The notes under the pieces: model-generated
What the model was told of the DNA's origin: nothing
Seen by the model: only the letters and a program-made list of their open reading frames with translations
The model's database searches: none
Part shown: positions 49,721 through 51,732 of the stretch, piece by piece
Position numbering within the stretch: position 1 is the stretch's first letter
Layout: each line of letters opens with the position of its first letter
Origin: Roseobacter ponti
GTDB taxonomy: Bacteria; Pseudomonadota; Alphaproteobacteria; Rhodobacterales; Rhodobacteraceae
NCBI RefSeq assembly: GCF_012932215.1
Contig: NZ_CP048788.1
Location: 3,410,001 to 3,474,000 of the forward strand
Length of the DNA stretch: 64,000 nt
Reading direction: 5' to 3'
Made by a program: the position numbers and the translations under genes

Positions 49721-50245
49721 ATGACGGACGTGCTGATCCCGACCCTCGAGACGGACCGGCTCGTCCTGCGCGCCCCCGTGCCCGCAGATGTCGCACCCTT
49801 CGCTGCCTTCTACGCCAGCGATGCCGCGAAATACGTCGGCGGCCCGCTGCGCGATTTCCAGGTCTGGCGCTACACCGCCGAGGTCATCGGCCACTGGCAG
49901 CTGCGCGGCTTCGGCCGCTGGATGGTCGAACGCAAAGACGCCCCCGGGGCCATCGGCCTGATCGGCCTGCACGCTCCGCCCGACTGGCCCGAGCCCGAGG
50001 TTGGCTGGATGCTCTGGGACGGCAACGGCAAAGGCTACGCTGCCGAGGCGGCCCGCGCCGCCCGCGATTATGCCTGGAATACACTTGGCCTCACCACGCT
50101 GATCAGCTCCATCGCCCCCGAAAACGCGGCCTCCATCCGGGTGGCCGAAGGCATGGGCGCGCGCCGTGAGGCGCAGGGCTTCGAGCACCCGCTCTTCGGC
50201 ACCATGGCCGTCTGGCGCCACCCGGCACCGGAGGCGCTGTCATGA
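49721..50245 (+). CDS. GNAT-family acetyltransferase (2 of 3)
   Basis: This 174-residue GNAT enzyme is homologous to its two neighbours: LETDRLVLRAPVPADVAPFA, a CoA loop in GNGKGYAAEAARAARDYAWN and PENAASIRVAEGMGARR. The ATG at 49721 has AGAGGA in front and matches the alignment with the other copies; the frame is open further upstream but that part lies within the previous gene. The end overlaps the third copy (ATGA). Confidence 0.84.
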   Translation: MTDVLIPTLETDRLVLRAPVPADVAPFAAFYASDAAKYVGGPLRDFQVWRYTAEVIGHWQLRGFGRWMVERKDAPGAIGLIGLHAPPDWPEPEVGWMLWDGNGKGYAAEAARAARDYAWNTLGLTTLISSIAPENAASIRVAEGMGARREAQGFEHPLFGTMAVWRHPAPEALS

Positions 50246-50844
50246 ACACAACAATCCCCGTGATTGAGACCCGGCGGCTGGTGCTGCGCGGTCCTGAGCC
50301 GCAGGACTATCCGGATTTCAAAGCAACCTTCACCAGCTACCGCGCGCGTTTCATGGGCGGGCCGCTGAATGCCTATGAGGCCTGGATGCTCTATTCGGCC
50401 GAAATCGGTCACTGGGAGATCCGCGGCTATGGCATGTGGATGATCCACGACCGCCAGACCGACGAGACTTATGGCATGGCCGGCGGCTGGAAGCCGGCGA
50501 AATGGCCCGAGGCAGAGATCGCCTGGGTGATCTGGCCTGACAGGGGCGGCCACGGCTATGCGCTCGAGGCCACCCACGCCGTGCGCGACTACCTCTACCG
50601 CGAGGGCGGCTGGGAAACCGCCGTCAGCTACATCGATCCCAAGAACCTGGACAGCATCCGCCTCGCGGAACGTCTCGGCGCCGTAAAAGATGCCGAAGCG
50701 GCCACCATCGACGGCAATGACGCGGTCTGGCGCCACCCCGCGCCAGCGGCCCTCAACGGCACGCAGCTTGCACACGGGATCGACATGGAGATCAGCCACT
50801 ACGCCGATCCGCTCTTCAGACCGAAAGGATGGGCCCTTGACTGA
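50242..50844 (+). CDS. GNAT-family acetyltransferase (3 of 3)
   Basis: This 200-residue member of the GNAT triplet has IETRRLVLRGPEPQDYPDFK, GGHGYALEATHAVRDYLYRE and DPKNLDSIRLAERLGAVKDA. The CoA-binding loop RGGHGYA differs slightly from the usual RGxGxA. Residues after 160 extend beyond the domain and may shape a specific acceptor site. It is translationally coupled to copy 2. Confidence 0.83.
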   Translation: MNTTIPVIETRRLVLRGPEPQDYPDFKATFTSYRARFMGGPLNAYEAWMLYSAEIGHWEIRGYGMWMIHDRQTDETYGMAGGWKPAKWPEAEIAWVIWPDRGGHGYALEATHAVRDYLYREGGWETAVSYIDPKNLDSIRLAERLGAVKDAEAATIDGNDAVWRHPAPAALNGTQLAHGIDMEISHYADPLFRPKGWALD

Positions 50845-50879: not shown

Positions 50880-50918
50880 GTGCACAGCCTGTGCACACTC
50901 TGTGTACGCCCGGTGCAC
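50880..50918. repeat. Four GTG(C/T)AC hexamers at exact 11-bp spacing
   Basis: GTGCAC begins at 50880, 50891 and 50913, and GTGTAC at 50902. All four are hexamer palindromes (GTGCAC, GTGTAC is nearly so) with starts exactly 11 bp apart, about one helical turn. A further ATGCAC lies at 50867. The array is 29 bp before the chorismate mutase ATG. The phasing suggests cooperative binding of a regulator on one face of DNA. Confidence 0.75.
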
Positions 50919-50946: not shown

Positions 50947-51243
50947 ATGACCGACCCCGTGACCCTTGCCGCGCAGGTGCTCAAAGAGCACCGGGCCAGC
51001 ATCGACCGCCTCGATGCGATCCTCGTCTATACGCTTGGCGAGCGGTTCAAACACACACAGGCTGTGGGGAAACTCAAAGCCACTCACGACCTTCCCCCGT
51101 CCGATCCGTCGCGTGAAGCGGCCCAGATCGAACGGCTCGAAGATTTGGCGCGTCAGGCCGATCTGGACCCTGAATTCGCCAGGAAGTTTCTCAACTTCAT
51201 CATCGCTGAAGTTATTCAGCACCACCGTAAACATCAGGAATAG
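50947..51243 (+). CDS. Chorismate mutase, AroQ type
   Basis: This 98-residue all-helical protein fits the AroQ chorismate mutase domain, which converts chorismate to prephenate for Phe and Tyr synthesis. Visible family residues are IDRLDAILVYTLGERFKHTQ (first helix with Arg/Lys ligands), VGKLKATHDLPP and the helix RKFLNFIIAEVIQHHRKHQE. The ATG has GGAGG in front. It is between the acetyltransferases and rpsP. It carries no prephenate dehydratase domain. Confidence 0.85.
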   Translation: MTDPVTLAAQVLKEHRASIDRLDAILVYTLGERFKHTQAVGKLKATHDLPPSDPSREAAQIERLEDLARQADLDPEFARKFLNFIIAEVIQHHRKHQE

Positions 51244-51315: not shown

Positions 51316-51732
51316 ATGGCTATGAAAATTCGTCTCGCCCGCGGCGGCTCCAAAAAGCGCCCCTTCTACCGTATCGTTGCCGCCGACAGCCGGATGCCGC
51401 GCGACGGCCGCTTTATCGAAAAGCTGGGCACCTATAACCCGCTGCTGCCCAAAGACAGCGAAGAGCGCGTGAAGATGGACGTCGAGCGCGTTCAGCACTG
51501 GATCGCGCAGGGCGCCCAGCCCACAGACCGTGTTGCCCGTATGCTGGAAGCCGCTGGTGCGACCGAGAAAACCGAGCGGAACAACCCCAACAAAGGCACC
51601 CCCGGCAAGAAAGCCCAGGAGCGCGCTCAGGAGAAAGCCGACAAGGCCGCAGCCGCAGCAGAAGCCGCAGCCGCCCCTGCTGAAGCGCCCGCCGAAGAGC
51701 CAGCAGCAGAAGAAGCCGCGGCAGAAGAGTAA
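51316..51732 (+). CDS. rpsP: 30S ribosomal protein S16
   Basis: This 138-residue small-subunit protein has its core at residues 1-80: [20 protein letters not shown] and [20 protein letters not shown] then NPL. The remaining 55 residues form an Ala/Glu/Lys/Pro-rich low-complexity tail; many alphaproteobacterial S16 proteins are extended like this. It opens the rpsP-rimM-trmD block. Confidence 0.96.

What the first reader, a model, noticed from the sequence alone, without database searches (positions are those of the whole stretch)
50880..50918. Four GTG(C/T)AC palindromes phased at exactly 11 bp upstream of chorismate mutase
The hexamers start at 50880, 50891, 50902 (GTGTAC) and 50913. Identical 11-bp spacing puts all four on nearly the same DNA face, which is very unlikely by chance in a 40-bp stretch and fits a cooperative oligomeric regulator. 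They end 29 bp before the chorismate mutase ATG, so control of aromatic synthesis, or of rpsP further on, is possible. I know of no described element of this form.
Basis: seen in the sequence. Interest (0 to 1): 0.72.

Follow-up and report, generated by a model that had tools for sequence, protein, structure and literature searches.

The report
Replication-oriented DNA arrays read by ribbon-helix-helix protein
The four evenly spaced short DNA words near a chorismate mutase gene are one of a dozen such arrays on this marine bacterium's chromosome; relatives spell the word differently, apparently matched to their own version of a fast-changing DNA-binding protein, and the arrays mostly point the way the DNA is copied.

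Summary
In detail: four GTGYAC hexamers at exact 11-bp spacing, far beyond chance. It is not mainly an aroQ operator. The genome holds 12 such arrays (reversed-pattern control 0) beside unrelated genes, without promoter preference. Linkers make the array directional; its direction follows local GC skew at 12 of 12 own sites (one near-tie), 74 of 91 other loci, and 41 of 53 arrays with non-palindromic words in four genomes. The aroQ site carries an 11-bp array in 19 of 90 genomes read (own site missed by that test), with other words: GTCGGT, GTACAC, ATGCAC, GTATGAC, GTATGG, GTTCATGC. Words tested genome-wide recur in their own genome and are mostly absent from others. The likely reader is a BrnA-antitoxin-like ribbon-helix-helix (RHH) protein: strong hits in 22 of 29 chosen genomes, an 11-bp array just upstream in 15 of 22 (two of these seeded the search), none at 6 weak paralogs. 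The gene's array word matches the aroQ array's in those 15 (0 of 20,000 permutations). Binding is inferred. Best guess: a self-regulated chromosomal landmark.

The parts
50880..50918 (-). Array of four 11-bp-phased hexamers (GTGCAC, GTGCAC, GTGTAC, GTGCAC on the + strand). By its linkers it reads on the - strand, which is the G-rich strand here.
   Evidence: orientation margin 23.7 for the - strand from linkers alone, agreeing with local GC skew
50880..50885 (.). unit 4 in array direction, GTGCAC; on the - strand followed by CG, the usual end of such arrays
50891..50896 (.). unit 3 in array direction, GTGCAC
50902..50907 (.). unit 2 in array direction, GTGTAC on + (GTACAC on -, the commonest word of congener G016)
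50913..50918 (.). unit 1 in array direction, GTGCAC
50242..50844 (+). GNAT acetyltransferase gene, left flank
   Evidence: PF13302 E=8.4e-27
50947..51243 (+). aroQ, chorismate mutase type II, right flank; used as anchor to find the orthologous site in relatives
   Evidence: PF01817 E=8.2e-20; found in 89 of 90 family genomes
51316..51732 (+). rpsP, downstream gene; not specifically tied to the array

Best explanation
The array is a multi-unit binding site for an RHH protein with the Pfam BrnA_antitoxin domain, encoded outside the window at G000:C1:3584641-3585006. One RHH dimer is taken to bind each 11-bp turn, and 3-5 neighbouring dimers to bind cooperatively on one face of the DNA. The protein controls its own gene through an array about 80 bp upstream. 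The other arrays, 12 in this genome and from a few to several tens in relatives, are mostly not operators: they are chromosomal landmarks, mostly intergenic, mostly pointing the way replication runs, as for a centromere or nucleoid-organising protein. Shown by computation: arrays, polarity, positional conservation, near-exclusive words in the genomes tested, gene-array linkage, word match. Inferred: binding, cooperativity, autoregulation, landmark function.
For: Twelve phased arrays in the own chromosome, reversed-pattern control 0; allowing 2 mismatches adds only one further array. Orientation from linkers alone agrees with local GC skew at 12/12 own sites (one margin only 0.1) and 74/91 other loci; non-palindromic words: G010 8/10, G012 9/10, G016 14/20, G091 10/13, total 41/53, p=8e-5. 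No promoter preference in 119 loci. Orthologous positions hold arrays in several genera and words: aroQ, sucB-lpd, valS, gltB/gltD, gyrB and others. aroQ site of 90 genomes: exact 6-mer x3 at period 11 in 14, 0 at every other period from 6 to 21, 1 at 22. Words genome-wide: ACCGAC (control 0), GTGYAY (control 0), CATAY (control not usable). Reader: matches in 24/29 chosen genomes at E<=0.001, 22 of them strong; array just upstream in 15/22, with 0/22 at periods 8-10 and 12-14, and 0/6 at weak BrnA-like hits. G000 and G012 were among the seeds picked beside arrays, so 13/20 is the independent count. Beta-strand residue 56: R in 11/11 GTRCAC readers, Y in 4/4 GTCGGT readers, S/A in 2/2 ATGCAC readers. 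Two supported reader clades within the genus match two words (99/96 and 100/98).
Against: No binding data. G006 and G122 gave no reader although they have ACCGAC arrays; G001, a 90% complete MAG, has one GTGCAC array and no reader hit. 7 of 22 reader genes have only imperfect or doubtful upstream repeats. Residue 56 is also R in readers of GTATGA, GTTCTT and one GTCGG word, so it is no simple code; the column test ignores phylogeny and other columns score as high. Two GTGCAC readers, L070 and L084, fall outside the main GTGCAC clade. Polarity has exceptions (17 of 91; 12 of 53); in the own genome 2 of 12 arrays disagree with their arm and two local skews are under 0.01. Skew was sampled coarsely; orthologous loci and shared MAGs inflate p-values. 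The AlphaFold monomer (pLDDT 70.6, pTM 0.42) shows the two RHH helices but no strand; PDB searches found nothing. NCBIfam gives a weak sub-threshold match to the segregation protein PrgO for one of five readers only. RHH dimers are two-fold symmetric (recalled), so polarity is not explained by one dimer.
Confidence: 0.6

Rival explanations
1. Global transcription factor: the RHH protein is an autoregulated regulator and the arrays are its operators, including one for aroQ-rpsP.
For: By naming from memory of sequences printed, several neighbours look like amino-acid metabolism genes (gltBD, leuC-leuD, cimA, carA, cysS).
Against: Arrays lie between convergent genes (23) more than divergent ones (14), inside genes (8 of 119, valS among them), and often hundreds of bases from starts. 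Replication polarity is not expected of operators.
Confidence: 0.25
2. Polar replication-fork barrier (works like Tus-Ter): the arrays let forks from ori pass and stop forks running the wrong way.
For: Orientation follows replication; small number per genome.
Against: In this genome no array lies between 1.42 and 2.37 Mb, around the skew flip near 1.9 Mb; a trap would be expected close to the terminus. A two-fold symmetric RHH dimer is an odd polar block.
Confidence: 0.1
3. Remnant of a mobile or toxin-antitoxin module: arrays are copies of an antitoxin operator spread by insertion, or decoys for an orphan antitoxin.
Against: Among one ORF per side printed for 20 reader loci only G029 showed a toxin-like gene, by eye. 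Linkers differ between arrays of one genome while hexamers hold, so arrays are not recent copies. Positions are shared between genera.
Confidence: 0.12
4. Chance or compositional artefact.
For: Single GTGYAC hexamers are at background level.
Against: Controls of 0 for reversed GTGYAC, GTGCAC, GTGYAY and ACCGAC patterns and near 0 for other periods; 15 genomes with matched words.
Confidence: 0.01

Closest known systems
ParR-parC (type II plasmid partition; recalled from general knowledge)
   Same: RHH protein binding tandem 11-bp direct repeats, with autoregulation
   Different: parC is one cluster on a plasmid beside parM; here many 3-5-unit arrays on a chromosome, replication-oriented; no parM homologue was searched for
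BrnT-BrnA toxin-antitoxin (Pfam PF14384)
   Same: reader carries the BrnA_antitoxin domain; antitoxin-like autoregulation is inferred
   Different: added N- and C-terminal helices in the model; no toxin-like neighbour noticed by eye in 19 of 20 loci; 6 of 6 weak BrnA-like hits lack arrays
Dispersed-site nucleoid proteins: Noc, SlmA, MatP, RacA (recalled)
   Same: tens of chromosomal sites of one protein, not tied to promoters
   Different: other protein folds, mostly single palindromic sites without known replication polarity; here phased polar arrays with changing words
KOPS / AIMS polar octamers (FtsK; recalled, start of the AIMS abstract seen)
   Same: orientation follows replication
   Different: KOPS are 8 bp and very numerous towards dif; arrays here are about 40 bp and few to several tens per genome

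Membership tests
BrnA antitoxin family (PF14384) | match to the Pfam domain above its curated cutoff | tested here: met
   10 of 10 readers tested, E 2.3e-7 to 1.7e-16, all above the 26.1-bit cutoff
BrnT-BrnA toxin-antitoxin system | adjacent toxin gene | tested here: inconclusive
   one ORF per side of 20 reader loci read by eye; toxin-like only in G029, a PIN_3 domain; the other ORFs were not run against a family library
Type II partition (ParMRC) | 11-bp direct repeats linked to an RHH gene | tested here: met
   15 of 22 reader genes, 13 of 20 without the two seeds
Type II partition (ParMRC) | linked actin-like ParM ATPase | not tested
   no ParM search was made
RHH fold | short strand followed by two helices, dimeric | tested here: inconclusive
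   helices 59-66 and 72-89 predicted after an unassigned segment; a monomer model cannot show the dimeric ribbon; no PDB hit
Tus-Ter-like fork trap | polar sites around the terminus, permissive for forks from ori | tested here: inconclusive
   orientation fits but in G000 no array lies in 1.42-2.37 Mb around the skew flip; no fork data
Promoter operator regulon | sites preferentially upstream of genes | tested here: not met
   co-directional 65, convergent 23, divergent 14, inside genes 8, contig edge 9 of 119
Site bound by the RHH protein | direct binding in vitro or in vivo | not testable with these tools
   needs EMSA, DAP-seq or ChIP-seq

The most novel reading that the evidence does not exclude
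Probability: 0.5. Interest if true: 0.92.

Novelty: new variant of a known kind. Interest (0 to 1): 0.82.

Why it matters
If right, this is a chromosome-wide protein-DNA system in many genera of Rhodobacteraceae, a common marine group, and it may be undescribed: nothing on it appeared in the titles and abstract starts listed by the ten paper searches made here, several of which listed only part of their hits. It would also be a natural experiment in how a DNA-binding protein and its many sites change specificity together, with matched protein-word pairs that could be swapped and tested. It gives a concrete handle on chromosome organisation in roseobacters.

Tried and rejected
aroQ or rpsP operator: set aside as the main role because arrays sit at unrelated loci without promoter preference. 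RNA element: Rfam (10 loci) and tRNA scans (11 loci) found only one tRNA, 3.6 kb away. PhaR/AniA, whose motif table lists TGCAC-rich sites (PMC12542648, passages only), MhpR (PMC8222616, one passage) and a plasmid oriT (PMC3832669, one passage): none shows 11-bp phased arrays in what I saw. PMC9836097 (passages) concerns GTA genes and GC skew. Structure search of the monomer model and PDB sequence search: uninformative.

Limits of the counts. 15 loci whose titles or flanks looked non-rhodobacterial or like plain repeats, loci with too little flank, and duplicates were dropped before the orientation matrix (leaving 118, 11 of them own). 16 of 107 foreign loci were too short for the skew test. 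In some searches I set the window's orientation by hand; one search recomputed it from linkers and agreed. Array strands and merged positions were entered by hand. Of 89 family genomes with aroQ, 17 upstream regions were not read. The reversed-pattern control is not usable, because CATAC reads the same backwards (it gave 18/12 in G113, 4/5 in G091 and 0-2 in others). The parS search had 3/3 control hits at up to 2 mismatches, against 2/2 exact matches. G018 was left out of alignment A2 for an in-frame stop; the L056 row starts after an upstream stop. One search used chosen genomes, most of them with known words.

Full report
The finding is real. Four GTGYAC hexamers lie at exact 11-bp steps at 50880-50918, between the GNAT stop and the aroQ start. 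Shuffled windows give 0.01 such triple matches on average, and 0 of 100 reach what is seen.

It is one of many. The own genome has 12 arrays of three or more GTGYAC at 11 bp, all on the main contig; allowing two mismatches adds one weak case; the reversed control pattern gives 0. In about 600 kb of own sequence, which includes the array-centred loci, 11 is the only period with a clear excess. Neighbours identified by Pfam are unrelated: an ABC permease, a photolyase-related protein, gyrase B, valyl-tRNA synthetase (array inside the gene), a KaiC/RadA-like ATPase, a response regulator, a GH36 enzyme, a short-chain dehydrogenase. Of 119 loci in this and other genomes, 65 lie between co-directional genes, 23 convergent, 14 divergent, 8 inside genes and 9 at an edge. 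That is not the placement of promoter operators.

The array is directional. Aligning 118 loci gives a unit of the form (C/T)GTGCAC(A/C)(A/G)N(C/G)(C/T), usually preceded by GGTGA(N)ATGC-like sequence and ending GTGCACCG. Orientation called from linkers alone agrees with local GC skew at 12 of 12 own sites (one margin of 0.1, two skews under 0.01) and 74 of 91 other loci; by chromosome arm it is 10 of 12. For non-palindromic words the strand needs no model, and the direction expected follows from the own array's orientation to aroQ: 41 of 53 arrays in four genomes fit the sampled skew (G010 8/10, G012 9/10, G016 14/20, G091 10/13). Skew was sampled every 100-450 kb, with no sample beyond 3.41 Mb in the 4.13-Mb contig of G010. 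The origin side of G000 is suggested by two exact parS-like sites at 81 and 83 kb (control 3 hits at up to two mismatches) and a skew flip near 1.9 Mb. No array lies between 1.42 and 2.37 Mb.

The word changes while the architecture stays. In the genus, the site upstream of aroQ carries GTGCAC or GTGTAC arrays in four genomes including this one and ACCGAC arrays in four others; several congeners show none. ACCGAC arrays then proved genome-wide in G010 and G012 and absent from G000, G004 and G016. Of 19 genomes of the genus, 10 have ACCGAC array hits, from 1 to 101, and 5 besides this one have GTGCAC or GTGTAC hits. G007 and G011 have both words. On the leading strand ACCGAC reads GTCGGT, in the same frame as GTGCAC. 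In 90 genomes with the aroQ site read, an exact 6-mer three times at period 11 occurs in 14, in none at other periods from 6 to 21, and in 1 at period 22. A looser test finds 19 at 11, one each at 6 and 12, and 3 at 22; the own site escapes it because of its GTGTAC unit. Further words include GTATGAC, GTATGG, ATGCAC, CATATG and GTTCATGC. Genome-wide tests in 15 genomes gave CATAY arrays in 6 (control not usable, CATAC reads the same backwards) and GTGYAY arrays in 6 (control 0); G105 and G126 show both classes, the other eight only one. Not every word was tested genome-wide. Outside the family none of 187 genomes of the class has exact GTGCAC arrays (190 searched, three in the family); other words were not tested there.

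Positions are shared. Flanking proteins group the same site across genera and words, for aroQ, sucB-lpd, valS, gltB/gltD, gyrB and others. Some of these gene names are read from sequence by recall.

The candidate reader came from one such group: a small gene beside the array at G000:C1:3585086 (L015), which matches Pfam BrnA_antitoxin. Seven homologs found beside arrays made a profile, which matched in 24 of 29 chosen genomes. Of these 22 are strong; G028 and G004 have only weak hits; G006, G001, G002, G122 and G097 have none. An 11-bp array lies just upstream of the gene in 15 of the 22, with none at periods 8-10 or 12-14 in any, and none at six weak BrnA-like hits. Two of the 15, G000 and G012, were seeds, so the independent count is 13 of 20. 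The word next to the gene matches the word at aroQ in the same genome: scores 0.81-1.00, mean 0.958 against 0.649 when shuffled, 0 of 20,000 shuffles as high. The 15 include relatives with the same word, so they are fewer than 15 independent cases.

The protein tree has two well-supported clades within the genus: GTGCAC/GTACAC readers (G000, G005, G007, G016, with G115, Leisingera and Lentibacter) and GTCGGT readers (G009-G012, with G106 and G077 of other genera). Two more GTGCAC readers, L070 and L084, branch elsewhere. In the predicted DNA-facing strand, residue 54 is T in 25 of 26, residue 52 is R or K (Q once), and residue 56 varies with the word. This is suggestive, not a code, and relatedness was not controlled for.

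AlphaFold gives an N-terminal helix, the two helices expected of an RHH protein and a C-terminal helix at moderate confidence; nothing similar was found in the PDB. One of five readers has a weak, sub-threshold match to the segregation protein PrgO.

Interpretation. That the RHH protein reads the arrays rests on linkage, matching words and known RHH behaviour at 11-bp repeats (recalled), and I hold it at 0.85. Replication polarity, lack of promoter preference and shared positions point to chromosome organisation or segregation; I hold this at 0.5. The ten paper searches listed nothing describing it, as far as titles and abstract starts show. The genus is probably Roseobacter: congener G001 has its one GTGCAC array at the same contig position as the record titled Roseobacter sp. 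Ww482.

Noticed in passing
   Followed up: partly
L593 (genome G029): A PIN-domain gene follows the RHH reader by 15 bp on the same strand, like a toxin-antitoxin pair.
   Followed up: partly
L541 and L542 (virus contigs): GTCATAC repeats at 11 bp; in L542 they lie next to a DnaA-box-like sequence, possibly phage or plasmid iterons.
   Followed up: no
G011 and G009: Far more ACCGAC array hits (101 and 77) than in the other 17 genomes of the genus (0-15).
   Followed up: no
G007:C3:22808 and G006:C16:529553: Five-unit ACCGAC arrays that read the same in two congeners, one of which otherwise uses GTGCAC; possible horizontal transfer or a shared old site.
   Followed up: no
L008:5141 (valS): The array lies inside the valS coding sequence, and loci grouped with it in other genomes carry arrays with other words.
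   Followed up: partly
G000:C1 about 3.0-3.8 Mb: GC skew is near zero or mixed over much of the left arm, suggesting past inversions; the two arrays that disagree with the arm agree with local skew, one of them weakly.
   Followed up: partly
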